Source: Pseudovibrio brasiliensis (GTDB lineage: Bacteria; Pseudomonadota; Alphaproteobacteria; Rhizobiales; Stappiaceae). From it: a DNA stretch of 64,000 nt. This document shows positions 42,750-63,040 of the stretch, piece after piece. Each line of letters begins with the position of its first letter. The stretch's first letter is position 1. Both the position numbers and the translations under genes were made by a program. Under the pieces are notes generated by a model. That model saw only the letters and a program-made list of their open reading frames with translations. It did not search any database and was not told the origin of the DNA. The DNA lies in NCBI RefSeq assembly GCF_018282095.1, contig NZ_CP074128.1, positions 310,001 through 374,000 of the forward strand. Direction: 5' to 3'.

Positions 42750-42810
42750 CTCCTCCTCTGAGTGCGCCCGGTCTGCATCAACAGGCTGACCGGGTGTGAA
42801 GTAAACAGAG

Positions 42811-42905
42811 CAGGTGGTCTGATCAGAAAACGGCAGGACCAGACCGCCTGTCCCATGCAATCCGGAAAGCCGAAGCGTCAATCCCGTAGACCTGTCGCTT
42901 CGGCT
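42811..42905 (+). other. two hairpins between binding protein and permease genes
   Basis: CAGGTGGTCTG (42811-42821) pairs with CAGACCGCCTG (42840-42850, one wobble); AGCCGAAGCG (42868-42877) pairs perfectly with CGCTTCGGCT (42896-42905). There is no T-run. They probably protect the binding-protein mRNA and lower downstream expression. Confidence 0.65.
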
Positions 42906-42936
42906 CTCAATGCTCTCGCCCTATTAGGACTCAGGA

Positions 42937-44750: not shown

Positions 44751-45745
44751 TGACCAACCAAAACGAAAGCCTGTTACAGGTTCGCGATCTCACCACCACC
44801 TTTCACAGCAAGGGCCGCGTTCTGCGTGCCGTTGATGGCATCTTCTTTGATGTCCGCGCTGGTGAAGTGCTTGGTCTGGTGGGAGAAAGCGGCTCCGGTA
44901 AATCCATCACCCTACGCTCCATCATCGGCCTCGCCCGTGATTACGGCACGGTGGAAGGCAATGTCTACTGGAAAGGAGAGGATCTGCTCGCTCGTACTGA
45001 CAAACAGCTGCAATCTGTGCGGGGCAGCCAGATCTCCATGATCTTTCAAGAGCCCATGACCTCACTCAACCCGCTGCTTACCGTTGGCTTGCAGATTGAG
45101 GAAAACCTGAAGGCCCACACGGATCTGGACCGCCGCGCCCGCACAGCTCGTGCCATTGAACTGCTAGACATGGTCGGCATTCCAAGCGCGGCATCCCGGC
45201 TCAAGGATTTTCCGCACCAGTTCTCTGGCGGTATGCGCCAACGAGTGATGATCGCCATCGCGCTGGCGTCCAATCCGGAACTGTTGCTGGCAGATGAACC
45301 GACCACCGCGCTAGACGTGACCATTCAGGATCAGATCCTGCAGCTGCTGCTGTCACTGGCTAAAGACCTCAACATGGCGATTGTGCTGGTGACTCACGAT
45401 TTGGGCGTGGTCGCCCAAACCTGTGATCGTGTAGCGGTGATGTACGCTGGTCGATTGGTAGAAACCGGCTCTGTTCGCGATGTACTGAAACGACCTCAGC
45501 ACCCTTACACACTCGGCCTGCTGAAGTCGGTACCGGAAAACATTCCTCCCCGCACACCACTGTACTCTGTGCCCGGCACACCACCGGCACTGGATGCCCT
45601 GCCCAAAGGATGTGCCTTCGCACCGCGCTGTCTGAAAGTGGAGGATGTGTGTCTTGGTACCAAACCACCACTGGCGGTTCTGGGGAATGGAATATCGTCG
45701 GCCTGTCATTTCACGGCAGACATTCGTGAGGAGGTGCTGGCATGA
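44750..45745 (+). CDS. ABC transporter ATPase (DppD type)
   Basis: A 331-residue ATPase. Walker A is GESGSGKS, the signature FSGGMRQRVMIAIAL and Walker B ELLLADEPTTALD. The C-terminal oligopeptide extension has the cysteine pattern GCAFAPRCLKVEDVC that binds an iron-sulfur cluster in related proteins. It powers the transporter with the DppF-type partner. Confidence 0.96.
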   Translation: MTNQNESLLQVRDLTTTFHSKGRVLRAVDGIFFDVRAGEVLGLVGESGSGKSITLRSIIGLARDYGTVEGNVYWKGEDLLARTDKQLQSVRGSQISMIFQEPMTSLNPLLTVGLQIEENLKAHTDLDRRARTARAIELLDMVGIPSAASRLKDFPHQFSGGMRQRVMIAIALASNPELLLADEPTTALDVTIQDQILQLLLSLAKDLNMAIVLVTHDLGVVAQTCDRVAVMYAGRLVETGSVRDVLKRPQHPYTLGLLKSVPENIPPRTPLYSVPGTPPALDALPKGCAFAPRCLKVEDVCLGTKPPLAVLGNGISSACHFTADIREEVLA

Positions 45746-46758
45746 CTTATGAAGCTCCGGTTCTGGAAGTTGAAGGCCTGCATTTACACTTTCCGCTCAA
45801 AAGAACCCTCTTCGACGCAATTCAACGCAAAGAAAAACGCATCGTCAAAGCCCTCAATGGGGTTAGCCTTGAGGTAAAACGGGGTGAAACCCTTGGCATT
45901 GTTGGTGAATCTGGCTGCGGAAAGTCCACTCTAGCACGCTGTCTGGCTCGTCTTTATGAGGCAGACAAAGGCACCATTCGCTATGACGGGCAAGAGGTTG
46001 CCGCCAAAGATGCTGGCGCATTGCGGGAGTATAACCGCAAGGTCCAGATGATGTTTCAGGACCCTTACTCCTCCCTCAATCCCCGCATGACAGTGCGGCA
46101 AGTGCTGAGCGAAGCCCTGCGCGTTCACAACATGCGTCCTTCTGAGCAGATCGAGACCCGCATTGCCGAGCTGCTGGATCTGGTCCGTCTGCCGCAAGAT
46201 GCTGCGGATAAGCTCCCGCACGAGTTTTCAGGAGGACAACGCCAACGCATTGCCATTGCACGTGCTTTGTCGGTGGAGCCGGAGGTGCTTGTGGCAGATG
46301 AGCTGGTGTCAGCGCTGGATGTTTCCGTGCAGGCGCAGGTGGTGAACTTGCTGCTGGAGCTGCAGGAAAAGCTGGGCCTGACGATCCTGTTCGTGGCCCA
46401 TGACCTCAGACTTGTGCGCCATGTATCCCACAGGGTTGCGGTGATTTATCTGGGATCAATTGTTGAGATCGGAGACTCCGAACAGCTCTTCAACGCCCCA
46501 AGACACCCCTACTCCAAGGCTCTTCTGGCAGCAGCGCCTTCTCTTGATCCCGACAAACGCCATACTCGCCCGTCAATCTCCGGCGAACTACCCAGCCCTC
46601 TCAATGTACCCAAGGGCTGTGCATTCCATGCCAGATGTCCCCATGCATCGGGCCGGTGCCAGAGCGAGATTCCCAGATTGAGGGCAATGGACGAGCTGGG
46701 TAAAGTGGCTTGTCATCATGCCGAAGCTCTTTTATCAGCGACGAACCCCATCAAATAG
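45742..46758 (+). CDS. ABC transporter ATPase (DppF type)
   Basis: A 338-residue second ATPase. Walker A is GESGCGKS, the signature FSGGQRQRIAIARAL and Walker B VLVADELVSALD, in which the usual Pro after Glu is replaced by Leu. The C-terminal GCAFHARCPHASGRC is the oligopeptide cysteine region. The stop is 11 bases from the aminopeptidase start. Confidence 0.95.
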   Translation: MTYEAPVLEVEGLHLHFPLKRTLFDAIQRKEKRIVKALNGVSLEVKRGETLGIVGESGCGKSTLARCLARLYEADKGTIRYDGQEVAAKDAGALREYNRKVQMMFQDPYSSLNPRMTVRQVLSEALRVHNMRPSEQIETRIAELLDLVRLPQDAADKLPHEFSGGQRQRIAIARALSVEPEVLVADELVSALDVSVQAQVVNLLLELQEKLGLTILFVAHDLRLVRHVSHRVAVIYLGSIVEIGDSEQLFNAPRHPYSKALLAAAPSLDPDKRHTRPSISGELPSPLNVPKGCAFHARCPHASGRCQSEIPRLRAMDELGKVACHHAEALLSATNPIK

Positions 46759-46769
46759 CCGAGCAGAAA

Positions 46770-48575
46770 ATGTTGGAAAATCAGAAGTTTGAGACAACCA
46801 CAGACCGCTTGAACCTCATCCGCGCCGAGTTGAAGAACAAGGGGCTGGACGGAGTTATCATCCCCCGGTTTGATGAGCATCAGGGGGAATATTGTGCCCC
46901 GCATGATGAGCGACTGGCATGGGCAACAGGCTTCACCGGCTCTGCTGGCCTCGCAATTATCACGGCAGATCAAGCGGTTATGTTTGTTGACGGCCGCTAT
47001 ACAGTGCAAGTACGCAACCAATGCAGCAGTGATCTGTTCTCCTACCAGCATATCTTTGATGAACCACTGGAAAACTGGATTTCCGCCAATATGAAGGCCG
47101 GTCAGCAAATCGGCGTTGATCCGATGCTTATCCCCTCCGCATGGTGGGATCGCTTTGCAGGCGGAGCAGAAGATGCAGGTGCAGCACTGGTCGCCACCAC
47201 CAGCAATATCATTGATGCAGTCTGGGCTGATCAACCGGAAAAACCACTCTCGCCAATCACACCGTATTCCCTTGAAAACGCTGGTAAAACCAGCCTGGAG
47301 AAACGCTCTGAGATTGCCGAGCAGCTGAAGGATGCAGGCGCAAAAGTGCTGGTGGAAACCCAACCAGACAACATCGCCTGGCTTTTAAACGTGCGCGGTG
47401 ATGATGTGGAGTTCAACCCTATCCCGCATTCCTTCCTGCTTCTGAAAGATGATGGTTCCGCTAATTGGTTCGTCGATTCCCGTAAGCTTTCCAACGACTT
47501 GAGCGAGTATGAACTGGAGAATATTGAGACCGCAGACCCATCCAGCTTCATTAGCTCACTGGAGAATATGACGGGTGAAGGCACGCAGGTTCTCATCGAT
47601 CCGATGTTCTCCCCCGTCGCCACCCGCCTCGCGGTTCAGGCTGCTGGTGGTGTTCCTGTGATGAAACCGGGAGCTGTTACTCTCACCAAGGCGAAGAAAA
47701 ATGATAGCGAACTCAGAGGGTTGCGCGATTGCCATATACGAGATGGTATCGCGTGGACCGAGTTCTCTGCTTGGCTGAAACGGGAAGTTCCACAGCGCGC
47801 TGAAGCGGGTGATCCGGTGCATGAGCTGGAAGCGGAGGAGCGCATCCTGATAGAGCGCCAACGCCAGAAAGACTTTGTATATCCGAGCTTTAGAAGTATT
47901 TCGGCCGCCGCTGGCAATGCCGCCATGTGCCACTACGCAGCCACGGAAGCGTCCAACACAGCGATCCTGCCTGAGAACACTTACCTGCTGGATTCTGGCG
48001 GTCAGTATCAGGACGGCACCACCGACGCGACGCGTACCTTTGCATTTACGGAAACATCTGAGGAGTTCAAACGCGCCTACACCGCTGTTTTCAAAGGCTT
48101 TGTCGCGCTTGCATCCCTGCGGTTTCCCAAAGGCACGCAAGGCCATCACATCGATGGTTTCGCCCGCCGTCCACTTTGGGAACTGGGTCTGGACTACGAC
48201 CACGGCACCGGCCACGGCATCGGCCACTTCCTCTCCGTCCACGAACAACCACAGCGCATCGGCAAACCATACAATCCGGTGGATCTGGTCGCGGGCATGG
48301 TGATGTCTATTGAACCGGGATATTACGTTGCAGATCAATACGGTATCCGGATTGAGAACCTCTTTGAGATTGTTGAAGAAGACGATGGTTTCCTTGTGTT
48401 CCAAAACCTCTCTTACATCCCGATCGAGCCGCAGATGCTCAACATGGTTGATCTGACACGAGCGGAAATCAAATGGCTTGGCGACTACAATGCTGATTTG
48501 AAACGGGTTTTTGGCCCGGAACTGAGCCCGGACGCCTATGACTACCTGATGCGCTGTACTGAACTACCGGAATAA
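46770..48575 (+). CDS. X-Pro aminopeptidase (M24B, long form)
   Basis: A 601-residue aminopeptidase P of the long, eukaryote-like (XPNPEP1) type with two creatinase-like N-terminal domains and a C-terminal pita-bread domain. Metal ligands are in LLDSGGQYQDGTTDATRTF (Asp pair), GTGHGIGHFLSVHE (His), MSIEPGYY (Glu) and GIRIENLFEI (Glu). It removes the first residue from peptides with proline in second place, in the cytoplasm. Being the last gene of the peptide-transporter operon, it should degrade the imported peptides. A frame open from 46710 overlaps the ATPase gene and is less likely as the start. Confidence 0.93.
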   Translation: MLENQKFETTTDRLNLIRAELKNKGLDGVIIPRFDEHQGEYCAPHDERLAWATGFTGSAGLAIITADQAVMFVDGRYTVQVRNQCSSDLFSYQHIFDEPLENWISANMKAGQQIGVDPMLIPSAWWDRFAGGAEDAGAALVATTSNIIDAVWADQPEKPLSPITPYSLENAGKTSLEKRSEIAEQLKDAGAKVLVETQPDNIAWLLNVRGDDVEFNPIPHSFLLLKDDGSANWFVDSRKLSNDLSEYELENIETADPSSFISSLENMTGEGTQVLIDPMFSPVATRLAVQAAGGVPVMKPGAVTLTKAKKNDSELRGLRDCHIRDGIAWTEFSAWLKREVPQRAEAGDPVHELEAEERILIERQRQKDFVYPSFRSISAAAGNAAMCHYAATEASNTAILPENTYLLDSGGQYQDGTTDATRTFAFTETSEEFKRAYTAVFKGFVALASLRFPKGTQGHHIDGFARRPLWELGLDYDHGTGHGIGHFLSVHEQPQRIGKPYNPVDLVAGMVMSIEPGYYVADQYGIRIENLFEIVEEDDGFLVFQNLSYIPIEPQMLNMVDLTRAEIKWLGDYNADLKRVFGPELSPDAYDYLMRCTELPE

Positions 48576-48593: not shown

Positions 48594-48629
48594 AAAAAAA
48601 GCCCCGCAGAGCGTGAAGCTCTGCGGGGC
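48594..48629 (-). terminator. strong terminator of the gamma-glutamyl operon
   Basis: A perfect 12-bp stem (48601-48612 with 48618-48629, loop GTGAA) is followed on the minus strand by seven T's (aaaaaaa at 48594-48600). It lies 26 bases beyond the alcohol dehydrogenase stop and also blocks read-through from the plus-strand aminopeptidase gene. Confidence 0.92.
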
Positions 48630-48654
48630 TAATCAGTTGGTGCTCAACAGGAAA

Positions 48655-49818
48655 TCAGGCGGAAACCTGTTCCCCGATGGCCTCAATGAGTAGAGCTTTC
48701 GCGGCCTCCAGCGTCAGCTCTACAGGGTTGCCACCGGCACTTGGATCCTTGATCGCTTCTTCCGCCAGCACGTCGATCTTGTCAGTGCCAACGCCCAGCT
48801 CGCTCAAGGTCTCCGGAACGCCCATGTCCGCCCGCATTTTCATAACAAAATCAAAGAAGCCGTCGAATCCGCCCTCGATATCGAGATAAGCCGCCAGCTT
48901 CTCGATGCGCTCTTCAATTGCACCACGGTTAAACTTCAACACAGTCGGCATAATCACAGCATTGGTCAGGCCATGGTGAGTGTTGTAAACCGCACCAACC
49001 GGGTGAGCCAGCGCGTGAATGCCGCCAAGGCCTTTCTGGAAGGCCACCGCGCCCATAGCTGCCGCACTCATCATGTGGCCGCGCGCTTCGATATCATTAG
49101 GATTTTCAACGACTTTCGGCAGGTTTTCTTTCACAAGACGCATGCCTTCTAGTGCGATACCCTGTGACATCGGATGGTAGAACGGAGAGCTGTACGCTTC
49201 CAGACAGTGCACAAACGCATCAATGCCAGTGCCCACAGTGATCATCTTCGGCATGCCGACAGTCAGCTCTGGATCACAGATCACAACGCTTGGCAGGATC
49301 TTCGGATGGAAGATGATCTTCTTGACGTGGCTCTCTGAGTTGGTGATCACACTCGCACGGCCAACTTCAGAACCGGTACCAGCCGTTGTTGGAACTGCGA
49401 TATTCGGATAGATCGCATCCGCATCCGCACGGGTCCACCAGTCACCAATGTCCTCAAAATCCCAGACCGGTCGGGTTTGACCTGCCATGAATGCGATCAG
49501 CTTGCCCAGATCAAGACCAGAGCCACCACCAAACGCGATAACACCATCATGCCCACCAGCCTTGAAGGCTGCAACGCCTGCTTCCAGGTTGATTTCAGTC
49601 GGGTTTGGATCAACCTCACTGAACATGGCGCGGCCAAGGCCAGCTTCTTCCATCACGTCCAAAGTGCTTGCGGTAACTGGCAGGTTTGCCAGGCCCTTAT
49701 CGGTTACAAGCAAAGGCTTTTTGATGCCTGCAGCTGCACAAGCCTCAGCGAGTTCCTTAATGCGTCCTGCACCAAAGCGGATTGCGGTTGGGTAGCTCCA
49801 GTTTGCTGTCAACGTCAT
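48655..49818 (-). CDS. iron-containing alcohol dehydrogenase
   Basis: A 387-residue group III alcohol dehydrogenase from ATG 49818; a longer open frame upstream runs into the aldehyde dehydrogenase gene. FGGGSGLDLGKLIAFM binds NAD(P). The metal ligands are likely Asp in VPTTAGTGSEVG and neighbouring region plus His residues in GGIHALAHPVGAVYNTHHG. It would oxidise a primary alcohol to an aldehyde. It starts five bases after the aldehyde dehydrogenase stop, so the two should act in sequence on the same compound. Confidence 0.93.
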   Translation of the reverse strand: MTLTANWSYPTAIRFGAGRIKELAEACAAAGIKKPLLVTDKGLANLPVTASTLDVMEEAGLGRAMFSEVDPNPTEINLEAGVAAFKAGGHDGVIAFGGGSGLDLGKLIAFMAGQTRPVWDFEDIGDWWTRADADAIYPNIAVPTTAGTGSEVGRASVITNSESHVKKIIFHPKILPSVVICDPELTVGMPKMITVGTGIDAFVHCLEAYSSPFYHPMSQGIALEGMRLVKENLPKVVENPNDIEARGHMMSAAAMGAVAFQKGLGGIHALAHPVGAVYNTHHGLTNAVIMPTVLKFNRGAIEERIEKLAAYLDIEGGFDGFFDFVMKMRADMGVPETLSELGVGTDKIDVLAEEAIKDPSAGGNPVELTLEAAKALLIEAIGEQVSA

Positions 49819-49823
49819 TGTTC

Positions 49824-51206
49824 TTATGCCTTTTTGAGGTGGTAGGATTTTGGACGGGTCAGGTTCTGATAGCCGATCTCTGAGAGTGCACCACCGCGAC
49901 CAGTGTCTTTGCAGCCGGTCCAGCACAGCGCCGGATCCAGATAGTCAGCGCGGTTCATGAAGACAGTGCCTGTCTCAATCTGCGCACCAATTTTTGCTGC
50001 CCGTGCAGGATCTTGGGTCCAAAGAGAGGCTGTCAGGCCGTAATGGCTGTCGTTCATCAGGCGGATCGCTTCTTTGTCGCTCTCCACTTTCATGATGCCG
50101 ACCACTGGGCCAAAGCTCTCTTCGCGCATCAATTCCATGTCGTGATTTACATCCACGAGGATCTGCGGAGCCAGATAGGCACCGCCATCATCTTCAGGGA
50201 AGAGACCTGCGTCGATCATCGGCTTCGCGCCCTGCTCAACCGCATCCGCCACTTGCTTACGCACCAGTTCCGCAAAGCGCACGTTTGCCATAGGGCCAAT
50301 GGTGGTTTTCTCATCCAGCGGGTTGCCGAGCTTGTAGCCGGAAACGATCTCGACAGCCTTCTTCACGAATGCATCGTATTTGGAAGAATGCACGTAGATG
50401 CGCTCGATGCCGCAGCAGCACTGGCCGGAATTGAACATGGCCCCATCAATGAGGGTTTCAGCAGCTGCCTCAACATCCGCATCATCCATCACGTAACCCG
50501 GATCTTTACCGCCCAATTCAAGGCCAAGGCCTGTGAAGGTACCAGCAGCAGCGATCTCCATCGCACGGCCACCGCCAACAGAGCCAGTGAAGTTCACAAA
50601 GCCGAAATTGCGGCCTGCGATCAGGTGAGAAGTGGTATCGTGATCCAGGAACAGGTTCTGGAATACCTCTGCCGGAACACCTGCTTCTGCAAAGGCACTC
50701 GCCATGCGCTCGCCAACCAAAAGGGTCTGGGTCGCGTGTTTCAGGATCACGGCGTTACCGGCGATCAGCGCTGGAGCCACTGTGTTGATCGCGGTCATGT
50801 AGGGATAGTTCCATGGTGCGATCACCAGAATGACGCCGTGAGGTTCCTTCTCGATGCGGCGCTCGAAGTTGTCGCTCTCTTCCGCGATGATCGGCTTCAG
50901 GCTTTCTTCCGCGATCTTTGCCATGTATGAGGCGCGCTCGTTAAAGCCGCCGAACTCGCCGCCATAACGAACTGGACGGCCCATCATCTTTGCAAGTTCC
51001 GGAACGATTTCGTCGTTCTGTTCACCAATCTTAGCAACGCCAGCCATCACCAACTTGATGCGCTCTTCGAGTGGGCGTGCAGCCCACTCTTTCTGCGCCC
51101 TCTTGGCACTGGCAATGACGGCTTCTGCTTCTTTCTGGCTTGCCACCGGACGTTCTGCAAACACAGAACCATCTACCGGCGAAATACATTTTAGTGTTTT
51201 TGTCAT
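49824..51206 (-). CDS. aldehyde dehydrogenase (NAD(P)-dependent)
   Basis: A 460-residue aldehyde dehydrogenase from ATG 51206 (GTG 51224 is an alternative). The cofactor loop is FVNFTGSVGGGRAMEI, the catalytic Glu lies in GLELGGKDPGYV and the nucleophile in FNSGQCCCGIERIYV, a cysteine triplet. It turns an aldehyde into an acid. Placed between a gamma-glutamyl ligase-like enzyme and an alcohol dehydrogenase, it probably corresponds in role to PuuC. Confidence 0.93.
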   Translation of the reverse strand: MTKTLKCISPVDGSVFAERPVASQKEAEAVIASAKRAQKEWAARPLEERIKLVMAGVAKIGEQNDEIVPELAKMMGRPVRYGGEFGGFNERASYMAKIAEESLKPIIAEESDNFERRIEKEPHGVILVIAPWNYPYMTAINTVAPALIAGNAVILKHATQTLLVGERMASAFAEAGVPAEVFQNLFLDHDTTSHLIAGRNFGFVNFTGSVGGGRAMEIAAAGTFTGLGLELGGKDPGYVMDDADVEAAAETLIDGAMFNSGQCCCGIERIYVHSSKYDAFVKKAVEIVSGYKLGNPLDEKTTIGPMANVRFAELVRKQVADAVEQGAKPMIDAGLFPEDDGGAYLAPQILVDVNHDMELMREESFGPVVGIMKVESDKEAIRLMNDSHYGLTASLWTQDPARAAKIGAQIETGTVFMNRADYLDPALCWTGCKDTGRGGALSEIGYQNLTRPKSYHLKKA

Positions 51207-51241
51207 GGTCAACTCATCATTCACAGCAATTGCTGTTCACA

Positions 51242-52639
51242 TCAGGCCCGTTCAAATCCGCGTGCAACCTCCCAATCAGTTACACGGCGGTCATATTCAT
51301 CCTGCTCGATCTTGGCGGCATGTGCGTAGTGATCAACCACATCGCCACCAAAAGCATCACGAAGCATTTCGGAGGTTTTCATTGCAACTGCGGCATCGCG
51401 CAGGGTTGTTGGAATTTCACGCGCACCTTCGCCGCCATAGGCATCACCTCTGAACTCAGGCTCCAGCTCCATTTCCTTCTCGATACCGTCAATGCCAGCA
51501 GCCAAAAGGGCGGCCATCGCCAGATATGGGTTCAGGTCTGCGCCGCCAACGCGGCACTCAACACGTACGGCTTTGGTGCCATCACCACACACGCGGTAAC
51601 CTGCGGTGCGGTTATCCATGCTCCAGATCGCTTTGGTTGGCGCAAACGTGCCAGCTGCAAAGCGTTTGTAGGAGTTGATGTTTGGGGCGAGGAAATAGGT
51701 AATTGCATCAGCGTGCTTCAAAAGACCTGCCAAATAGTGGCGCATCATTTTGGACATACCGTACTCACCAGATGGATCGTAGAACAGAGACTCGCCGTCC
51801 TTGCCCCACAGCGACTGGTGCACGTGAGAAGAGCTGCCGGCTGCATCATAGTTCCATTTAGCCATGAAGCTCACGCTCTGGCCTTGCTGCCAGGCGATCT
51901 CTTTACAGCCGTTTTTGATGATGGAATGGCGATCAGCCATGGTCAGCGCATCGGAATAGCGGACGTTGATTTCTTCCTGGCCGGCATCTGCTTCACCCTT
52001 GGAGCATTCGACCGGAATGTCAGCACCATTGAGACCGTTGCGGATGGCACGCATCACGTTCTCTTCCTTGGTGGTTTGGAAGATGTGATAGTCTTCGTTG
52101 TAAGCGGAAATCGGAGACATTCCGCGGTAGCCCTTGGAATGGGCTTCTTCAAAACTCTCTTTAAAGAGGAAGAACTCCAGCTCTGTTGCCATGTTCGCGG
52201 TCATGCCCATGCCTTCAAGGCGGTCAACCTGGCGTTTCAAAATGGCGCGTGGAGAATGTGGAACCTCTTTGTGGGTATGGTGGTCCAGCACATCGCACAG
52301 TACCAGTGCGGTGCCTTCCAACCACGGAATAACGCGCAAGGTGGCAAGGTCTGGCTTCATGACGTAGTCGCCATAGCCTGCTTCCCAGCTTGTGGCCTTG
52401 TAGCCGTCCGGAGTTGCCATCTCCATGTCGGTTGCAAGTAGATAGTTACAACTGTGGGTCTCTTCCCAGGCGCTGTTCACGAAGAATTCTGCCTGAAAAC
52501 GCTTGCCCATCAGGCGGCCCTGCATGTCCACCTGTGCTGCAATCACTGTGTCAATCTCACCGGCATCGACCAGCTCGCGAAGCTCGTCGAGGGTCAGTTT
52601 TCCGGTTCTACGTGTCTTTTTGGTTTCTTCTCGCAACAT
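51242..52639 (-). CDS. glutamine synthetase-like gamma-glutamylamide ligase (PuuA type)
   Basis: A 465-residue glutamine-synthetase-family enzyme. The N-terminal beta-grasp has VIAAQVDMQGRLMGKRF; catalytic metal and ATP segments include ATELEFFLFKESFEEA, AGSSSHVHQSLW and PNINSYKRFAAGTFAP. The lack of the adenylylation-site and glutamine-synthetase-specific loops points to the PuuA/GlnA-like group, which joins glutamate through its gamma-carboxyl to an amine. With alcohol and aldehyde dehydrogenases downstream, an amino alcohol such as ethanolamine is a plausible partner. The ATG at 52639 is clear but its ribosome site is weak. Confidence 0.93.
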   Translation of the reverse strand: MLREETKKTRRTGKLTLDELRELVDAGEIDTVIAAQVDMQGRLMGKRFQAEFFVNSAWEETHSCNYLLATDMEMATPDGYKATSWEAGYGDYVMKPDLATLRVIPWLEGTALVLCDVLDHHTHKEVPHSPRAILKRQVDRLEGMGMTANMATELEFFLFKESFEEAHSKGYRGMSPISAYNEDYHIFQTTKEENVMRAIRNGLNGADIPVECSKGEADAGQEEINVRYSDALTMADRHSIIKNGCKEIAWQQGQSVSFMAKWNYDAAGSSSHVHQSLWGKDGESLFYDPSGEYGMSKMMRHYLAGLLKHADAITYFLAPNINSYKRFAAGTFAPTKAIWSMDNRTAGYRVCGDGTKAVRVECRVGGADLNPYLAMAALLAAGIDGIEKEMELEPEFRGDAYGGEGAREIPTTLRDAAVAMKTSEMLRDAFGGDVVDHYAHAAKIEQDEYDRRVTDWEVARGFERA

Positions 52640-52770
52640 ACCTGTTCCCCGAGGACCCTGTTAAAGCGGCGGATGCCCTCGCCTCTCCTGCATGGCATCA
52701 CCGACACTGCTTACTCACTGTGTGGCTTGGTCAGCCCGGAACCCGGGCCGACCTTTCTTGGATAATCTGC

Positions 52771-53826
52771 TTAACCGTAGCGGTAAGGACGACCAGCCTT
52801 CGCCATTGCTGCGTTGTATTCCTTCAGGATCTTAACAACGCGCGCATTGCGCTCGGACTTGGCTGCAATCTCGTCCCAGAACTTCAGAGCTTCTGCTTCC
52901 ACAGTTGCCCACTCTTCATCAGGAATAGAGGTCAGCTCCAGCTTTTCACCCTGCGTACGCAGCTTCGCTTCACCTGCCCAGTACCAGTGCTGGCGATAGT
53001 AATGCGAGCTGTCCATGCACAGGTTGAAGAGGGTCTTCAGGTGGTCTGGCAGTTCGTTCCAACGCTCTTCGTTTGCGAAGTAAGATCCAGCCCACGCACC
53101 GGAGATGTTGTTGGTGAGGAAGTAGTTGGTCACATCAGCCCAGCCTACGGTGTAGTCCTCGGTGATGCCTGACCATGCAATACCGTCCAGTTCGCCGGTC
53201 TGCATTGCAACTTCAATGTCTTCCCATGGTAGGGTGACCGGAACAACGCCGAAGCGTGTCAGGAACTTACCTGCAGTTGGGAAGGTGAAGACGCGCTTGC
53301 CCTTGAGGTCTGCAAGGCTGCGGATCGGGTCTTTGGTTGCAAAGTGACAAGGATCCCAGGCACCAGCGGAAAGCCACTTAACGCCTTCTACTTCGCCATA
53401 AGCTTCTTCCCAGATTTCTTTCAAGCCCCAGTGGTTGAACAGGGCCGGAACATCAAGGCTGTAGCGGGAAGCGAATGGGAAATAGCCACCGAAAACAGAT
53501 ACATCTACTGGTGCTGCAATGGAGTCATCATCAGACTGCACAGCATCAATGGTGCCGCGCTGCATGGCGCGGAAAAGTTCACCGGTTGGTACCAGCTGGT
53601 CAGCGTAGTAAAGCTCGATTTCCATCTCACCATTTGCTGCCTTGTTGAAGGCATCAATGGATGGCTTGATTACGTGCTGTGCAAGCGCTGCACCTGCGTA
53701 TGTCTGAAGGCGCCACTTGATTGGGCGGCCCGCAGCATGAACAGCCGGTGCTGCAAGGGTAGATGCACCAGCAGCTGCGACGGTTGTCAAACCGGCTTTC
53801 TTAAGAAAATCACGTCTATTCGTCAT
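52771..53826 (-). CDS. TRAP transporter substrate-binding protein (TakP/DctP type)
   Basis: A 351-residue periplasmic receptor with a twin-arginine signal (NRRDFLKKAGL, cleavage near VHAAGR), as in TakP and related TRAP receptors. Conserved parts are FGGYFPFASRYSLDVPALFNHW, the DPCHFATKDPIRSLADLKGKR stretch with the clamp arginine and MQTGELDGIAWSG. The ATG at 53826 has GGGGAA upstream. It follows the permease genes here instead of leading them. The ligand is presumably the compound fed into the gamma-glutamyl route or one of its products. Confidence 0.9.
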   Translation of the reverse strand: MTNRRDFLKKAGLTTVAAAGASTLAAPAVHAAGRPIKWRLQTYAGAALAQHVIKPSIDAFNKAANGEMEIELYYADQLVPTGELFRAMQRGTIDAVQSDDDSIAAPVDVSVFGGYFPFASRYSLDVPALFNHWGLKEIWEEAYGEVEGVKWLSAGAWDPCHFATKDPIRSLADLKGKRVFTFPTAGKFLTRFGVVPVTLPWEDIEVAMQTGELDGIAWSGITEDYTVGWADVTNYFLTNNISGAWAGSYFANEERWNELPDHLKTLFNLCMDSSHYYRQHWYWAGEAKLRTQGEKLELTSIPDEEWATVEAEALKFWDEIAAKSERNARVVKILKEYNAAMAKAGRPYRYG

Positions 53827-53965
53827 ACTCAATTCCCCTTGGAATATGAATTTCTGGATCCCTCAGTACCGGTGGACTTTTTATTGCGAGGGGTGTGATT
53901 TTTATCTGTCTCCATCCGGAATTCTTGCATTACTTCAATGGTTACGCTGGTAAGCTCTCCTTATG

Positions 53966-55291
53966 TCAGCGTGCGTAATAAAGGTTCGGCAGCCAGAGCG
54001 CGATTTGCGGGAAGACCGTCACCAGACCCAAGCCAAACACCATGATTGCCACGAATGGAATGATGGACTTGTAGATGTCTGTCAGTGAGATTTCTGGCGG
54101 TGCCATGGCGCGCATCAGGAACAGGTTGTAGCCGAATGGCGGTGTCATGTAGGCGATCTGACAGGTGATGGTGTAAAGCACGCCGTACCAGACCAGATCG
54201 AACCCAAGCAGCTTAACCAGTGGGACGTACAACGGTGCTACGATCACCAGCATGGCGGTGTCATCCAGGAACATGCCCATCACGATGTAGGAGAGCTGCA
54301 TCAGCAGAAGGATCTCCCATGGGCTGAGGCCCAGATCACCCACGAAGAAGTTCTCAATCGCCCGCACAGCACCCAGACCGTCAAACACAGCGCCAAAGGC
54401 GAGTGCGGCCAGAATGATCCACATGAACATACAGCTGATCTGCAGTGTCTTTTCAGTGGTGATGTGCAGCAGGCGGAACGACAGGCGTCCTTTGAACCAT
54501 GCAGCAAGCGTTGCAGCGGTTGCGCCAACTGCGGAGCTTTCCACGAGGCTGGTCACGCCCATCAGGAACAGGCCGGTCATGGCAAAGAAGATGAACAGTG
54601 GGATCACACCGGCTTGCAGAAGGCGGATCTTTTCAGCCCATGTGATCTCTTTGCGCTCTTCTTCAGAAAGGGTTGGCCCCAGTTCTGGCTGAAGGCGGCA
54701 GCGGATGACGATGTACAGGATAAACAGACCTGCCAGTAGCAGACCCGGAATAGCACCTGCGAGCCAGAGCTTGCCCACTGGCTGGCGGGCAATCATGCCG
54801 TAAAGAACCAGAACCACACTTGGCGGCACGAGAATGCCCAGTGAGGAACCGGCCTGAATAACACCGGTCACCATCACCTTGTCATAGCCGCGACGCAGCA
54901 GTTCCGGCAGAGCGATGGTTGCGCCGATGGCCATACCGGCCACAGACAGACCGTTCATGGCGGAAATCATCACCATGAGGCCGACTGTGCCGATGGCCAA
55001 TCCACCATGCAGGCCACCTGTCCAGACATGGAACATCTTATAAAGATCTTCCGCGATGCCTGACTCAGAGAGCATATAGCCCATGAAAATGAACAGTGGC
55101 AGCGTGAGGAGCGGGTACCACTTCATCAGCTTCATACTGGCGGAGAAGGCAATTTCGGAGCCACCATCCCCCCACAGAAGCAGAGCGGCGATAACAGCAA
55201 CGGAACCAATTGCAGCAAAAACGCGTTGCCCGGTGAGGAGCATCAGCATCATGCTGGAGAACATCAAAATGGCGATCAGTTCATAACTCAT
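53966..55291 (-). CDS. TRAP transporter large permease (DctM)
   Basis: A 441-residue membrane protein with the DctM segments SAMNGLSVAGMAIGATIALP, SSLGILVPPSVVLVLYG and MTPPFGYNLFLMRAM. It overlaps the small permease gene by four bases and lies 139 bases before the binding-protein gene. Confidence 0.95.
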   Translation of the reverse strand: MSYELIAILMFSSMMLMLLTGQRVFAAIGSVAVIAALLLWGDGGSEIAFSASMKLMKWYPLLTLPLFIFMGYMLSESGIAEDLYKMFHVWTGGLHGGLAIGTVGLMVMISAMNGLSVAGMAIGATIALPELLRRGYDKVMVTGVIQAGSSLGILVPPSVVLVLYGMIARQPVGKLWLAGAIPGLLLAGLFILYIVIRCRLQPELGPTLSEEERKEITWAEKIRLLQAGVIPLFIFFAMTGLFLMGVTSLVESSAVGATAATLAAWFKGRLSFRLLHITTEKTLQISCMFMWIILAALAFGAVFDGLGAVRAIENFFVGDLGLSPWEILLLMQLSYIVMGMFLDDTAMLVIVAPLYVPLVKLLGFDLVWYGVLYTITCQIAYMTPPFGYNLFLMRAMAPPEISLTDIYKSIIPFVAIMVFGLGLVTVFPQIALWLPNLYYAR

Positions 55292-55797
55292 GGCGCAGGT
55301 CTCCCAAGGGCTGCGGCCAAGTCCTTAAAGAACGTCGCGATTGCCTGAAGCAGCATCAAGAAAATTCCAAAACACATTACGGCTTTGATCGGGGCCATCG
55401 GTGGCGCCCATGCCGAATAGCTTTCCTCGCTGTATTTGATGGCGTATTCCAATGAGGAAAGGCCGCCATAAAGGAGGAAGATGAGGTAGAAAATCAGAAG
55501 CAGGATGGTCATCACATCCATAATGGCCTTACGTCGTGGAGACCAGCTTCCGTAAAACAGATCCATGCGCACGTGGGATTGCGTCTGCATGGAATATGCG
55601 CCACCCAGCAGGTAGTAGGCGGCCATGGTGAACTGCGCTGTTTCCAGCGTCCAGAGTGGTGGTGCGAAAAAGGTCTTGGCGATGGAGGAGTACAAAAGCA
55701 CTCCCAGCATCACGAAGATGAGGTACATGGCAAACCGGCCAACATATTTGTTGATCCAGTCAACCCATCTGACGAAAACAACTATTCCCCTTGGCAT
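55288..55797 (-). CDS. TRAP transporter small permease (DctQ)
   Basis: A 169-residue protein with four helices; the segment METQSHVRMDLFYGSWSPRRK-like loop and the WAPPMAPIKAVMCFGIFLM end are of the DctQ type. It starts one base away from the amidohydrolase stop and overlaps dctM, so the whole set is one transcript. Confidence 0.9.
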   Translation of the reverse strand: MPRGIVVFVRWVDWINKYVGRFAMYLIFVMLGVLLYSSIAKTFFAPPLWTLETAQFTMAAYYLLGGAYSMQTQSHVRMDLFYGSWSPRRKAIMDVMTILLLIFYLIFLLYGGLSSLEYAIKYSEESYSAWAPPMAPIKAVMCFGIFLMLLQAIATFFKDLAAALGRPAP

Positions 55798-55798
55798 T

Positions 55799-56629
55799 TT
55801 AATCTGCTGCCCTTGCTTTTGTTGTTGCCCCCTGCCCGCTCACAGCTGTTTCAGCGCTAAACTGTGGCAGGACTTGCAGAATTGCCTCTCCCAACAACTC
55901 TGCAACTTGCTCCTGGTCTGCTCGTTTAGCGATAAGGTCGTTGCGTACCTCAATCATAACGTTTAGCAGGCCGCGGGATTGTGCCTGAGAAACAAGGGTA
56001 TGCGTAACCCCGTCTTCTGGCCCATACGGTTCGTTTCTTTGTATGTCGTAGAGATCTGACGGGCACAGTGCGTTCAGAAGCGCATCAGCAAAACGTGTGT
56101 CGCTGTCGTGCAAAACACCCACTTCCACGGCGCGTTTCTTGCCGTTGTAAACCGGGGTGAACGAGTGGATGGTGATCATTACCGGCAACTGACCGGAGGC
56201 CTGCTTGGCATCAATCACCTGTTTCACTTCGGCTTGGAAGGGACGGTAATACTTGTTAACCCGGTCCAGACGCTGTTCATCACTCAAAGAGACATTGCCC
56301 GGCACCTCAAAGATTTCGCTCTTTTCCGGCATGGCGCTTGGGGCCTCCGGTGGGCGGTTACAATCATAAACGAGGCGCGATACTCGTTGAGCGACCAGGG
56401 GTGCGTTCAGTCTGGTGGAGAGGAGTTCGGCGACTGCCAGAGCTCCCGGATCCCAGGCTGCATGGCTGCTTGCAGCTTCTTCGCTTAGACCAAGGCCATC
56501 AAGGTATGCAGGAATAAACTTGGATGCGTGTTCGCAGACCAACACAATCGGAGCTGCTCCTCCTGTATTGATCGTTTCAACAATGTCGTTGCCAACAGAT
56601 TCTATCTGGTCAATTTTGACTTCAGACAA
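55799..56629 (-). CDS. N-formylglutamate amidohydrolase-family enzyme
   Basis: A 276-residue zinc-dependent amidohydrolase of the FGase family (relatives: HutG, and bacterial acyl-glutamate hydrolases). LVCEHASKFIPAYL, HAAWDPGALAVAELL and TIHSFTPVYNGKKR contain the expected His/Asp/Glu metal ligands. It cleaves an amide bond on glutamate. As the first gene of the operon it could release glutamate from a gamma-glutamyl acid made by the downstream enzymes. The start is TTG 56629 with GGGGGGA eight bases upstream. Confidence 0.9.
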   Translation of the reverse strand: MSEVKIDQIESVGNDIVETINTGGAAPIVLVCEHASKFIPAYLDGLGLSEEAASSHAAWDPGALAVAELLSTRLNAPLVAQRVSRLVYDCNRPPEAPSAMPEKSEIFEVPGNVSLSDEQRLDRVNKYYRPFQAEVKQVIDAKQASGQLPVMITIHSFTPVYNGKKRAVEVGVLHDSDTRFADALLNALCPSDLYDIQRNEPYGPEDGVTHTLVSQAQSRGLLNVMIEVRNDLIAKRADQEQVAELLGEAILQVLPQFSAETAVSGQGATTKARAAD

Positions 56630-56701
56630 GAACAGTCCCCCCGATGCATCTTGTTTTTCCTTGTACTTTCAGTCTTTTTATTCGTAAAAGAGATTCTGAA
56701 A

Positions 56702-56740
56702 GAAACGTTTCGAAAGAGACTAATCTGAATGGAACGTTTC
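56702..56740. promoter_or_regulatory. twin GAACGTTTC sites, likely RpiR operator
   Basis: The perfect palindrome GAAACGTTTC (56702-56711) and the near copy GGAACGTTTC (56731-56740) are 29 bases apart, close to three helical turns, in the 143-base region between the divergent amidohydrolase and rpiR genes. A dimeric regulator could bind both on one face of the DNA. Confidence 0.7.
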
Positions 56741-56772
56741 ACAAAGCCTAAAAACTAGGCAAATATACATAC

Positions 56773-57666
56773 ATGAGGCAGGTGAGAGACGTGCGAGACC
56801 CAAATGAACAGACCGTCGCAGAAAAATTACGCGGACATTTTAATGGGTTAACTCGTGCGGAGCGCCAGTTGGCTGTCTCTCTGCTTGCAAATTATCCAGT
56901 CAGCGGGCTGGGCAGTGTTGCAGAGCTTGCAAAATCGGCAAATGTTTCAGGGCCAACCGTTGTGAGAATGGCGCAGAAGATTGGTTTTGCAGGATTTTCT
57001 GAGTTGCAGGCCGCTCTGCGATCGGAGGTGGAAGAGACCATTTCCAACCCGATCTCCAAACAGGAACGCTGGACCCGAAATGCACCTGATGCACATATTC
57101 TGAACAGGTTTGCAGACGCTGTCATTGATAATCTGAAACAAACCTTACAGCAAATAGACCCGCAGGACTTCGATCAGGCCGTGCGTTTGCTCACAGATCG
57201 TGAACGCGCTGTCCACATTGTTGGGGGCCGTATCACCCGCGCGCTTTCAGATTACTTCTTCACGCACTTGCAGGTGATCCGCGACGATGTGATCGCCATT
57301 GCCTCCAACTCCAACACGTGGCCGCATTACCTTTTGAATATGAAAGAGGGTGATGTGGTGGTTGTGTTTGATATCCGTCGATACGAGCACGACATTCTGC
57401 GGTTTGTCGATCTGGCTCGCGAACGGGGCGTTGTGGTGATTGTGTTTACCGATCAGTGGACGTCACCAGCGGCGGTTAATGCAGAGTACGTGTTCAATGC
57501 CCGCATTGAAGCGCCTTCCGCGTGGGATAGTACGGTGGTGATCATGTTCATTCTGGAAGCCATGATCGAAGCGATGACGACATCCACCTGGGAGATCACC
57601 AAGGAGCGTATGAACACGCTGGAGAGCCTGTTCGACAAAACTAAGATGTTCAGCAAGTCCAGTTAG
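56773..57666 (+). CDS. RpiR-family regulator with SIS domain
   Basis: A 297-residue regulator. The N-terminal helix-turn-helix (LTRAERQLAVSLLANYPVSG, SVAELAKSANVSGPTVVRMA) is followed by a SIS sugar-isomerase-like ligand domain (AVHIVGGRITRALSDYFFTH). RpiR proteins often sense phosphosugars but also serve amino-acid and organic-acid operons. It is divergent from the gamma-glutamyl operon and likely represses it through the twin sites at 56702-56740. A GTG start at 56791 with a better ribosome site is possible. Its stop overlaps the TDT gene by four bases. Confidence 0.92.
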   Translation: MRQVRDVRDPNEQTVAEKLRGHFNGLTRAERQLAVSLLANYPVSGLGSVAELAKSANVSGPTVVRMAQKIGFAGFSELQAALRSEVEETISNPISKQERWTRNAPDAHILNRFADAVIDNLKQTLQQIDPQDFDQAVRLLTDRERAVHIVGGRITRALSDYFFTHLQVIRDDVIAIASNSNTWPHYLLNMKEGDVVVVFDIRRYEHDILRFVDLARERGVVVIVFTDQWTSPAAVNAEYVFNARIEAPSAWDSTVVIMFILEAMIEAMTTSTWEITKERMNTLESLFDKTKMFSKSS

Positions 57667-59963: not shown

Positions 59964-60932
59964 GTGTGTATTCAGATACCTTCAGATCAATCCTGTCGAT
60001 TTGAGCTGGATGAATGGAACACACGGCTGACCGAAATCTGCGGCCACTTTGTGACTAACACAGAGACCGGCAGCGTAACCGGAAATGCCTCGCTGCTGCA
60101 TTTGGGGGACGTAGACTGCGCCCGTGTCACACACAATGCCAGAGAGATTACACGCGGCCCTTCCGATATCAGCAAGGATGGAGAGGCCTATTACTTCCTG
60201 ATCCTTCAATTACGTGGTGAAGCTGAGTTGGAGCAAAACGGCCAAACGGCCCTGCTCTCTTGCCCCGGTGATATGACGCTGATTGATTCAGTAAAGTCCT
60301 CTGCCTTTCGCGCCAATCGGGAGCTTGGGTCGGATCAAATCTCCATCCACATCCCCCGCCATCTGCTGCATAAACAGTTCAACTCCACCTACGCCTGCGG
60401 TCGAAAGATCTCCGCCTCTTCAGGCGCAGGTCAACTGATCAATGCGCACCTGAACATGCTGTTGTCTGCTCAACCTGGAAGCCAGAAACAGCACTTGTTG
60501 TCAGGGGCTTTCCATGATGTGGTGAGTGCAACGTTTCTGGAAGAAGACACGTGCACCTTGCAGGAAGGCTATGGCAAGCTGCAGCTTCTCCTCTCGCTTA
60601 TTCACGACAACGCATTGGAAGAGAATTTCAACATTGATGAACTCTCCAAGCTTTCCAGCATGTCACGCAGCAGCATTTACCGGCTTTTCCGAGAACATGG
60701 CCTGAGCTGCAATGAGCAGATCGCCAAGGTGCGTGTCGGGCGGTTTAAGCGGGAGCTGTCCCGCCGTTTGCATTCCAGACAAGACTTCAGAATTTCACAG
60801 CTCGCCTTCGAGTTTGGCTTCCGTGATCTGTCGACCTTCAACCGCGCTTTCCGTGCACAAGTTGGTATGTCTCCGCGCAATTTTGCTGAGCAGATCCGGC
60901 AAAAGGAACCAGCTCTGAAACGATATGCCTAG
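59964..60932 (+). CDS. AraC-family regulator (FeaR-like)
   Basis: A 322-residue regulator from GTG 59964 with AGGGGAGG six bases upstream. The N-terminal half is an AraC-binding-like (cupin-type) domain, and the C-terminal 100 residues form the two helix-turn-helix motifs (FNIDELSKLSSMSRSSIYRLF; ISQLAFEFGFRDLSTFNRAF). FeaR of E. coli has the same architecture and activates the copper amine oxidase gene tynA; here a copper amine oxidase gene follows 116 bases downstream on the same strand. Confidence 0.88.
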   Translation: MCIQIPSDQSCRFELDEWNTRLTEICGHFVTNTETGSVTGNASLLHLGDVDCARVTHNAREITRGPSDISKDGEAYYFLILQLRGEAELEQNGQTALLSCPGDMTLIDSVKSSAFRANRELGSDQISIHIPRHLLHKQFNSTYACGRKISASSGAGQLINAHLNMLLSAQPGSQKQHLLSGAFHDVVSATFLEEDTCTLQEGYGKLQLLLSLIHDNALEENFNIDELSKLSSMSRSSIYRLFREHGLSCNEQIAKVRVGRFKRELSRRLHSRQDFRISQLAFEFGFRDLSTFNRAFRAQVGMSPRNFAEQIRQKEPALKRYA

Positions 60933-61048: not shown

Positions 61049-63040
61049 ATGACTTCAAAACTGTTGGGGGGGCTTGTCGCCGCTTCGATGCTCACATCGG
61101 CGGCTTACGCTGCTGACCTACATCCACTGGATGGCTTGACGGGTGATGAGCTTAACGCGGTTCGCGCGACGCTGATTGAAGCGAGTATCGCAAGTGACAA
61201 AACTCTTTACCCGCTGATTGAGCTTCTTGAGCCGCACAAGCAGGCGGTGCTGAGCAATGCGACGGACGGGAGCCTTGATCGTAGAGCAACGGTGCATTTT
61301 CAGGAAAACGACAAGTTCCATCAGGCCGTGGTGAACATCACCAAGGGCACGGTTGAGAGCACTTCCGCGATGGAAGGCCAGCCGATGATCATGCTGGCGG
61401 ACTTTATGTCGGCCATGGAGATCGCGCTGGGAGATGAGCGCATGGTCGCTGGTCTCGCCAAACGGGGACTGACACCAGACGACGTGTTCTGCCTTCCGCT
61501 GACAGCAGGCAACTTCTTCAGTGATGCCGAGAAGGGTAAGCGCCTGATGAAAGTGCCGTGTTACGTGAACCCAACCAGTTCCAACTTCTACGCTAAACCA
61601 GTTGAGGGGCTGGTGGCTGTGGTGGAGCTTTCCGAGCGCAAAGTGCTGGATGTGCTGGACGAAGGCGCTGTCCCTCTGCCAGAGGATGACTGGGGCTACA
61701 ACGAAGATGAAGTCGCCAAACGTACAGCGCTGAGAGCAAAAACCAATCCGGCGCGTCTGCAGCAAGAAGGCGGTCCGAACTTCTCCATCGATGGCAGTGA
61801 AATCACCTGGGACATCTGGAAGATGCGTTACCGGGTCGATAAACGCCCCGGTCTCGTCCTGTCGCAAGTCAAAGCCAATGATGGCAACAACTGGCGCTCC
61901 GTGCTCTATCAGGCTTCCCTTTCTGAGGTGTTCGTGCCGTATATGGACCCATCAGAAGGCTGGTATTGGCGCACTTACATGGACAGTGGTGAATACGGCT
62001 TCGGCTTGTTCCTGACACCATTGCGCAAGAACGTAGATTGCCCGGATTACGCGACTTTCCTTCCCGCCCTCATCCATGATGATATGGGTCAGCCACTGGA
62101 GATCCCTGACGCAATCTGCATCTTTGAGCGGGACATTGGGAACCCGGCATGGCGCCACTTTGAGGTGTTTGCTCAATCAGAAACCGAGTTCGTTCCTGCG
62201 GAAGGTCGTCCAGAGACAGAGCTGGTCATCCGTACAGCCTCTGAAGTGGGCAACTACGACTACCTGATCGACTATCGCTTTAAACAGGATGGCACTATCT
62301 ACCTGAAAGTAGGTGCATCTGGTCTTGACGCGGTGAAAGGCGTTGCCTCCAAAACTCTAACAGATCCAACTGCTGCAGAAGATACAAAATATGGGTCGTT
62401 GATTGCGCCATATCTCGTGGCCCCATTCCACGATCACTACTTCAACTTCCGTCTTGATTTTGATGTCGATGGGCCAGATAACACAATGATGGTTCAGGAG
62501 ATTGTTGGTGGTGAGCCTCCAGTCAACATCCCACGCCGTTCACTTTGGACGGTAAAGAACACGCCAGTGAAAAGCGAGATGGAAGGTCGCTTCCGCCTCA
62601 GCTCCATGAAGCCGAAAGCCTTTATGGTGATGAACGGAAACGTGGATGGATATCTTGGTCACAAGCCAGGTTACATGATCCACCACGGCAGTGTGTCTTA
62701 CGCACCGTTTGACTTTGAAAACGATGCGCCATTCGTGCGGAACCGCTACATTGAGTACAGCGTATGGAACACGGCTTACGATCCCAAAGAGCGCTACGCT
62801 GGTGGTGAGTTGGCTATGGGTTCAGACGGCTCTGATGGTCTGGCCGAATGGGTGAAACAGGACCGTGACTTGATGAACAAGGACGTGGTCACCTGGTTCA
62901 CAGCTGGCTTCCATCATGTGCCGCGTATGGAAGACTGGCCGGTCATGTCTACAGAGTGGAAGACCATCCATATCCAGCCGATGAACTTCTTCCCACGCAA
63001 CCCGGCTCTTACTATCCGGTTGCCAGACGCAAACAGCTAA
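61049..63040 (+). CDS. copper amine oxidase (primary-amine oxidase)
   Basis: A 663-residue periplasmic enzyme with a cleaved signal (SAAYA-ADL). The topaquinone precursor is Tyr403 in NYDY, the catalytic base Asp312 in YMDSGEYG, and copper is bound by His461 and His463 (HDH) and His623 in HHVPRMEDWP. It oxidises a primary amine (phenylethylamine or tyramine in TynA) to an aldehyde, ammonia and peroxide. The aldehyde would be oxidised further; no FeaB-type dehydrogenase is adjacent. The tandem with the FeaR-like gene suggests amine-inducible expression. Tyramine would lead to 4-hydroxyphenylacetate, which fits the aromatic cluster at 31-41 kb. Confidence 0.95.
   Translation: MTSKLLGGLVAASMLTSAAYAADLHPLDGLTGDELNAVRATLIEASIASDKTLYPLIELLEPHKQAVLSNATDGSLDRRATVHFQENDKFHQAVVNITKGTVESTSAMEGQPMIMLADFMSAMEIALGDERMVAGLAKRGLTPDDVFCLPLTAGNFFSDAEKGKRLMKVPCYVNPTSSNFYAKPVEGLVAVVELSERKVLDVLDEGAVPLPEDDWGYNEDEVAKRTALRAKTNPARLQQEGGPNFSIDGSEITWDIWKMRYRVDKRPGLVLSQVKANDGNNWRSVLYQASLSEVFVPYMDPSEGWYWRTYMDSGEYGFGLFLTPLRKNVDCPDYATFLPALIHDDMGQPLEIPDAICIFERDIGNPAWRHFEVFAQSETEFVPAEGRPETELVIRTASEVGNYDYLIDYRFKQDGTIYLKVGASGLDAVKGVASKTLTDPTAAEDTKYGSLIAPYLVAPFHDHYFNFRLDFDVDGPDNTMMVQEIVGGEPPVNIPRRSLWTVKNTPVKSEMEGRFRLSSMKPKAFMVMNGNVDGYLGHKPGYMIHHGSVSYAPFDFENDAPFVRNRYIEYSVWNTAYDPKERYAGGELAMGSDGSDGLAEWVKQDRDLMNKDVVTWFTAGFHHVPRMEDWPVMSTEWKTIHIQPMNFFPRNPALTIRLPDANS

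What the first reader, a model, noticed from the sequence alone, without database searches (positions are those of the whole stretch)
48655..57666. Candidate gamma-glutamyl route for an imported amino alcohol
The operon has an FGase-type amidohydrolase, TRAP transporter, PuuA-type ligase, aldehyde dehydrogenase and iron alcohol dehydrogenase. In the putrescine pathway (PuuA, B, C, D) the oxidase PuuB acts on an amine; here an alcohol dehydrogenase takes that place, and an FGase-like enzyme replaces PuuD. This predicts: amino alcohol + glutamate, oxidation to aldehyde and acid, then release of glutamate and an amino acid (ethanolamine would give glycine). A gamma-glutamyl ethanolamine route is known in Streptomyces (GlnA4), but this enzyme set with TRAP and RpiR is not one I know.
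Basis: partly seen in the sequence, partly recalled or inferred. Interest (0 to 1): 0.8.

Follow-up and report, generated by a model that had tools for sequence, protein, structure and literature searches.

The report
Known marine ethanolamine-use operon
This is an ordinary copy of an already published set of genes with which marine bacteria import ethanolamine, a piece of membrane lipids, attach it to glutamate and turn it into glycine.

Summary
In detail: a seven-gene minus-strand operon (FGase-family amidohydrolase, three TRAP subunits, glutamine-synthetase-like ligase, aldehyde dehydrogenase, iron alcohol dehydrogenase) lies at 48655-56629 beside a divergent RpiR gene. The window's DctP matches the ethanolamine-bound structure 4uab (E 8e-172) and has Phe where ordinary TRAP binding proteins have a carboxylate-reading Arg (Phe in 79 of 80 relatives, Arg in 5 of 5 aligned paralogues). 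No EutB was found in the genome. The host is a Pseudovibrio (inferred). Two additions not seen in the passages read: a probable RpiR operator TGWAA-N6-TTWCA (34 of 35 RpiR-side intergenic regions, 2 of 42 loci without RpiR), and a second operon form with a GATase-family protein instead of FGase. Verdict: real, rightly read, already known.

The parts
55799..56629 (-). FGase-family amidohydrolase (GGAH type, gamma-glutamylglycine amidohydrolase), TTG start
   Evidence: Pfam FGase 142.8 bits; PDB relative 2odf, E 8.6e-81; same position as MED193_10026
55288..55797 (-). TRAP small permease DctQ (EtoV type)
   Evidence: Pfam DctQ 81.9 bits
53966..55291 (-). TRAP large permease DctM (EtoW type)
   Evidence: Pfam DctM 229.8 bits
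52771..53826 (-). TRAP ethanolamine-binding protein (EtoX type), twin-arginine signal
   Evidence: phmmer to 4uab/4xf5, E 8.4e-172; TAT signal model; Phe180 in 79 of 80 relatives in place of the ligand Arg, Glu223 in 80 of 80
51242..52639 (-). Glutamine-synthetase-like glutamate-ethanolamine ligase (ETAGA type)
   Evidence: Pfam Gln-synt_C 348.1 bits; best PDB match 5dm3, E 3.7e-200; below the GlnA, type III and PuuA curated cut-offs
49824..51206 (-). Aldehyde dehydrogenase (GAADDH type)
   Evidence: Pfam Aldedh 401.6 bits; none of the 25 NCBIfam models shown (of 44) reaches its cut-off
48655..49818 (-). Iron-containing alcohol dehydrogenase (GETADH type)
   Evidence: Pfam Fe-ADH 163.9 bits and ADH_Fe_C 146.7 bits
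56773..57666 (+). RpiR-family regulator, divergent
   Evidence: Pfam HTH_6 and SIS
56697..56712 (.). Predicted RpiR operator, copy 1 (TGAAAGAAACGTTTCG; 1 mismatch to TGWAA-N6-TTWCA)
56726..56741 (.). Predicted RpiR operator, copy 2 (TGAATGGAACGTTTCA; 1 mismatch), 29 bases from copy 1
48600..48630 (-). Intrinsic-terminator-like hairpin at the end of the operon
   Evidence: 13 pairs, 10 G-C, then a T-run

Best explanation
This is an EtoX-type ethanolamine utilisation operon of a Pseudovibrio. A TRAP transporter imports ethanolamine. The GS-like enzyme joins it to the gamma-carboxyl of glutamate with ATP. The iron alcohol dehydrogenase oxidises gamma-glutamylethanolamide to the aldehyde, and the aldehyde dehydrogenase makes gamma-glutamylglycine. 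The FGase-family enzyme then splits this into glutamate, which is recycled, and glycine. The divergent RpiR protein probably represses the operon through two palindromic sites between the genes until substrate arrives. Shown in print for the Phaeobacter counterparts: induction of five of the operon's proteins on phosphorylethanolamine, and ethanolamine binding by EtoX. Inferred: each enzyme step in this organism and the role of RpiR.
For: The same eight kinds of gene in the same order in Phaeobacter MED193, five of the proteins raised on phosphorylethanolamine, EtoX Kd 7.9 uM for ethanolamine (passages). DctP matches 4uab/4xf5 at E 8.4e-172; 4uab is the ethanolamine complex of Csal_0678 (passage). 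The GS-like protein's best PDB match is 5dm3, E 3.7e-200, then 11zs, E 4.6e-183, then a gap to 7tdp at 1.5e-54. The Arg by which TRAP proteins read carboxylates is said in print to be lacking in Csal_0678 (passage); the aligned position is Phe in 79 and Tyr in 1 of 80 relatives, and Arg in 5 of 5 aligned paralogues. No EutB in the genome, E. coli control positive. TRAP, GS-like, ALDH and ADH genes stand together in alpha- and gammaproteobacteria.
Against: No activity is shown for these proteins. EtoX-type transporters also occur without the enzymes nearby: among the 68 of 80 loci with enough flank, 12 have no GS-like gene, and two (L005, L009) have FGase and ligase but no matching ALDH and ADH nearby, so the TRAP genes alone do not prove the route. 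In Phaeobacter EtoX also rose under plain phosphate lack. One paper calls the C. salexigens pathway demonstrated, another says it was predicted in silico. 4xf5 is, from recall, the same protein with 2-amino-1-propanol, so the substrate may be broader than ethanolamine. 4 of 16 genomes of the genus lack a close EtoX.
Confidence: 0.93

Rival explanations
1. The operon serves mainly another small amino alcohol, such as L-alaninol or 1-amino-2-propanol, by the same chemistry, giving alanine or another amino acid.
For: The enzyme set would handle primary amino alcohols in general (inference); 4xf5, by recall, holds 2-amino-1-propanol in the same protein as 4uab (same sequence group).
Against: Ethanolamine is the ligand measured for the Phaeobacter counterpart, whose operon responds to phosphorylethanolamine; Glu223 and its surroundings hardly vary over 80 relatives.
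Confidence: 0.05
2. A polyamine (Puu-like) pathway in which the ligase takes putrescine.
For: The ligase has partial similarity to the PuuA model (207 bits).
Against: The curated PuuA cut-off is 650 bits; there is no PuuB-type amine oxidase in the operon, and an alcohol dehydrogenase takes that place; the transporter is of the ethanolamine-binding group.
Confidence: 0.01
3. A carboxylate TRAP operon with unrelated metabolic genes.
For: Carboxylates are the typical TRAP substrates (passage).
Against: The position of the selectivity Arg holds Phe and the gene set recurs together.
Confidence: 0.01

Closest known systems
Ethanolamine operon MED193_10021-10056 of Phaeobacter sp. MED193 (RpiR, GGAH, EtoV, EtoW, EtoX, ETAGA, GAADDH, GETADH; PMC10132767, passages)
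   Same: Same eight kinds of gene in the same order
   Different: Host. The two were not aligned by sequence here, the orientation of the published RpiR gene was not in the passages, and no operator is described in them
Chromohalobacter salexigens ethanolamine TRAP binding protein Csal_0678 (4uab)
   Same: DctP matches at E 8.4e-172 over residues 27-350
   Different: Host; the paper of origin (Vetting et al.) is not held, so its operon was not compared
GlnA4 (SCO1613) route of Streptomyces coelicolor (PMC6529630, passages)
   Same: Gamma-glutamylation of ethanolamine, then a dehydrogenase, an aldehyde dehydrogenase and an FGase-family hydrolase proposed
   Different: No TRAP transporter among the genes named in the passages; a different regulator, EpuRI
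Puu pathway (PuuA, PuuB, PuuC, PuuD)
   Same: Ligation to glutamate, oxidation and release (recalled)
   Different: Alcohol dehydrogenase in place of PuuB, FGase in place of PuuD; below the PuuA cut-off
ipu isopropylamine/alaninol pathway of Pseudomonas (recalled, not read)
   Same: Gamma-glutamyl amino alcohol intermediates
   Different: Not compared by sequence here

Membership tests
EtoX-type gamma-glutamyl ethanolamine operon | RpiR, FGase, TRAP Q-M-P, GS-like, ALDH, Fe-ADH in this order | tested here: met
   against the order given
EtoX-type gamma-glutamyl ethanolamine operon | TRAP binding protein of the Csal_0678/EtoX group | tested here: met
   E 8.4e-172 to 4uab/4xf5; the next PDB group is at 1.6e-14
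EtoX-type gamma-glutamyl ethanolamine operon | Loss of the carboxylate-reading Arg; conserved acidic platform residue | tested here: met
   Phe180 in 79 of 80 and Glu223 in 80 of 80. That position 180 is the Arg site rests on the alignments; that Glu223 equals Glu220 of Csal_0678 is inferred and the residue named
EtoX-type gamma-glutamyl ethanolamine operon | Enzyme activities and growth on ethanolamine | not testable with these tools
   needs bench work
PuuA (gamma-glutamylputrescine synthetase) | NCBIfam GGputSyn score of at least 650 bits | tested here: not met
   207.1 bits
Glutamate-ammonia ligase (GlnA, type III) | NCBIfam cut-offs 429.15 and 469.6 bits | tested here: not met
   268.1 and 249.8 bits
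Eut (cobalamin ethanolamine ammonia-lyase) pathway | EutB in the genome | tested here: not met
   0 matches in G000, E. coli control positive

The most novel reading that the evidence does not exclude
The EtoX transporter feeds two parallel forms of the gamma-glutamyl ethanolamine route. In form A (this window) the last step is done by an FGase-family enzyme. In form B a different GS-like ligase (32-35% identical to this one) goes with a class-I glutamine-amidotransferase-family protein instead, so the final amidohydrolase was replaced by an unrelated fold. Where a divergent RpiR is present, in either form, it acts through TGWAA-N6-TTWCA sites, with ethanolamine or a gamma-glutamyl intermediate as the signal.
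Probability: 0.5. Interest if true: 0.35.

Novelty: already known. Interest (0 to 1): 0.2.

Why it matters
The operon links breakdown of phosphatidylethanolamine to glycine and glutamate supply. The 2023 paper reports etoX in roughly 5-10% of ocean bacteria. For this window the value is a firm annotation, plus a testable operator for an RpiR regulator and a likely case of one enzyme standing in for an unrelated one in the same pathway position.

Tried and rejected
Literature: a five-term search found nothing. The isopropylamine/alaninol search listed 20 of 44 papers; none looked by title to be about this operon and I opened none. Vetting et al. 2015 was sought by PMC id and DOI and is not held, so I rely on passages of others about it. 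A Pseudovibrio + ethanolamine search gave 4 papers; I opened none.

Loci without a GS-like gene nearby: I read ORFs behind etoX in L011 and L033 and scanned by Pfam a few ORFs near etoX in L006, L012 and L037. The scanned ones were unrelated (CorA, ketopantoate reductase, LysR, ThiC, a complex I subunit). The L033 neighbours look by eye like an amide/oligopeptide ABC cluster and were not scanned. In L005, which has FGase and ligase but no ALDH/ADH match, the one neighbour scanned was a sigma-54 response regulator. The lead was dropped; the missing enzymes may lie elsewhere in those genomes, which I did not search.

Form-B hydrolase: 11 of the 32 form-B loci with enough flank (10 from Pseudomonas, plus L018) show no GATase match even at E 10, apart from a 19-residue chance match in L053, so the hydrolase there is elsewhere or different.

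The ammonia-site residues of the GS-like protein were looked at by eye and not resolved; no claim is made. The operator motif was written by eye from the same intergenic regions that were then counted, so the shuffle comparison is partly circular. The contrast with loci without a detected RpiR is the better control, though those are largely other bacteria, and in up to 4 of them an FGase gene precedes DctQ so that the 300 bases tested are partly coding. In the window as a whole, 10 matches at up to 1 mismatch against 5.25 expected (6 of 100 shuffles reach 10) is not itself striking.

Full report
What is there. The region 48655-56629 holds seven genes on the minus strand, in transcription order FGase-family amidohydrolase, DctQ, DctM, DctP, GS-like ligase, aldehyde dehydrogenase, iron alcohol dehydrogenase, with a divergent RpiR gene at 56773-57666. 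All eight family assignments are strong. None of the NCBIfam cut-offs shown for the two dehydrogenases or the ligase is reached (for the aldehyde dehydrogenase 25 of 44 models were shown). The ligase scores 268 bits on GlnA (cut-off 429) and 207 on PuuA (cut-off 650), so it is neither an ordinary glutamine synthetase nor PuuA by those models. A terminator-like hairpin closes the operon at 48630-48600.

Where it is from. The operon genes are 96-100% identical (best segments) to those of Pseudovibrio denitrificans JCM 12308 (L003), so the host is a Pseudovibrio (inferred). The genome G000 has 6.03 Mb in 6 contigs; the window is on contig C3.

What it is. The DctP protein matches PDB entries 4uab/4xf5 at E 8.4e-172, while the next PDB group is at 1.6e-14. 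A 2025 paper states that 4uab is Csal_0678 of Chromohalobacter salexigens with bound ethanolamine and that Glu220 holds the ligand (passage). A 2015 paper states that Csal_0678 lacks the Arg by which TRAP proteins recognise carboxylates (passage). In an alignment of 80 relatives the aligned position (180) is Phe in 79 and Tyr in 1; in the 5 paralogues of the same genome that could be aligned it is Arg in all 5. Glu223, the likely counterpart of Glu220, is present in 80 of 80. The own-genome search gave 15 matches, the gene itself included; of the 7 other ones fetched as loci (L082-L088), 5 passed the script's threshold and were aligned.

The published counterpart. Westermann et al. 2023 (PMC10132767; outline and passages read) list in Phaeobacter MED193 RpiR, GGAH, EtoV, EtoW, EtoX, ETAGA, GAADDH and GETADH at locus tags 10021 to 10056 in steps of five: the order of the window. 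GGAH, EtoX, ETAGA, GAADDH and GETADH rose in cells grown on phosphorylethanolamine (EtoX also without any phosphate source), and EtoX bound ethanolamine with Kd 7.9 uM and none of the four analogues named in the passage. The paper says closely related genes were demonstrated to act in C. salexigens and A. tumefaciens. The mBio 2019 paper on GlnA4 says the C. salexigens route was predicted in silico, and proposes the same steps with an FGase-family hydrolase (passages); a 2022 review repeats them (passages). I did not align the Phaeobacter proteins with the window's.

Spread. The eight genes in this order and these orientations were found in 21 of 80 relatives fetched (listing). A close EtoX (E at most 1e-150) is present in 43 of 61 genomes searched, the own one included: 12 of 16 in the genus, 21 of 21 in the rest of the family, 10 of 24 in the rest of the order. 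The own genome has one EtoX, four FGase-family genes and five GS-domain genes and no EutB. Other possible ethanolamine routes, such as amine oxidases or transaminases, were not searched for; a copper amine oxidase gene lies at 61049-63040.

First addition: the RpiR side. The intergenic regions of the window and of the 34 relatives in which the script found a divergent RpiR gene were compared. A palindrome TGWAA-N6-TTWCA with at most one mismatch occurs in 34 of 35 (58 sites; L020 is the miss), and without mismatch in 15 of 35, against a mean of 2.0 (maximum 6) and 0.06 (maximum 1) regions in 100 dinucleotide shuffles. At most one mismatch: 10 of 11 regions whose RpiR is below 42% identity, 2 of 42 stretches of 300 bases upstream of DctQ in loci without a detected RpiR, and 51 of 2000 random 200-base stretches. 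The window has two copies, at 56697-56712 and 56726-56741, each with one mismatch. The motif was drawn from these same regions, and relatives are not independent; the window and L003 are nearly one sequence. The one held paper with all three terms RpiR, ethanolamine and TRAP transporter was Westermann et al., and the passages I read name no operator.

Second addition: a swap. Of 80 loci, 68 have enough flank. 24 of these carry the window's kind of GS-like ligase (62-99% identical), and all 24 have FGase and none the GATase; 22 of the 24 also have ALDH and ADH, L005 and L009 not. 32 carry another GS-like ligase (32-35% identical to this one); none has FGase, 21 have a GATase-family protein, 31 have ALDH and ADH, and 5 have an RpiR gene. 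12 have no GS-like gene within reach, 3 of them with FGase. The 12 loci with short flanks: 4 with the window's ligase (2 with FGase), 2 with the other, 6 with neither (2 of those with FGase); none with the GATase. The GATase family was identified by Pfam in L010 and L025; the other 19 match the L010 protein by tblastn. This fits an unrelated enzyme taking the same last step, as PuuD does in the putrescine pathway (recalled). My searches listed no paper that I recognised as describing it, but for most of those papers I saw only titles and abstract starts of capped lists, and the founding paper is not held.

Verdict.

Noticed in passing
L010:13196-13939, L025:13126-13848 and 19 further loci: Loci with an EtoX-type transporter and another GS-like ligase carry a class-I GATase-family protein in 21 of 32 cases with enough flank, and FGase in 0 of 32.
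   Followed up: partly
window 56690-56745: Two copies of a palindrome shared by 34 of 35 divergent RpiR intergenic regions; a likely operator.
   Followed up: partly
window 57134-57149: A perfect match to the same palindrome inside the RpiR gene itself.
   Followed up: no
window 61049-63040: Copper amine oxidase gene following an AraC-family regulator gene at 59964-60932; perhaps another amine catabolic unit.
   Followed up: no
window 23914-24903 and 33144-34193: Two further TRAP binding-protein genes in the same window; a PEP mutase/isocitrate lyase-family gene lies downstream of the first, at 26876-27730.
   Followed up: no
window 41172-48575: Peptide-type ABC transporter genes and an aminopeptidase P-like M24 peptidase gene, convergent with the ethanolamine operon.
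   Followed up: no
window 52720-52760: GC-rich inverted repeat between the DctP and ligase genes, seen by eye; may stabilise the DctP message.
   Followed up: no
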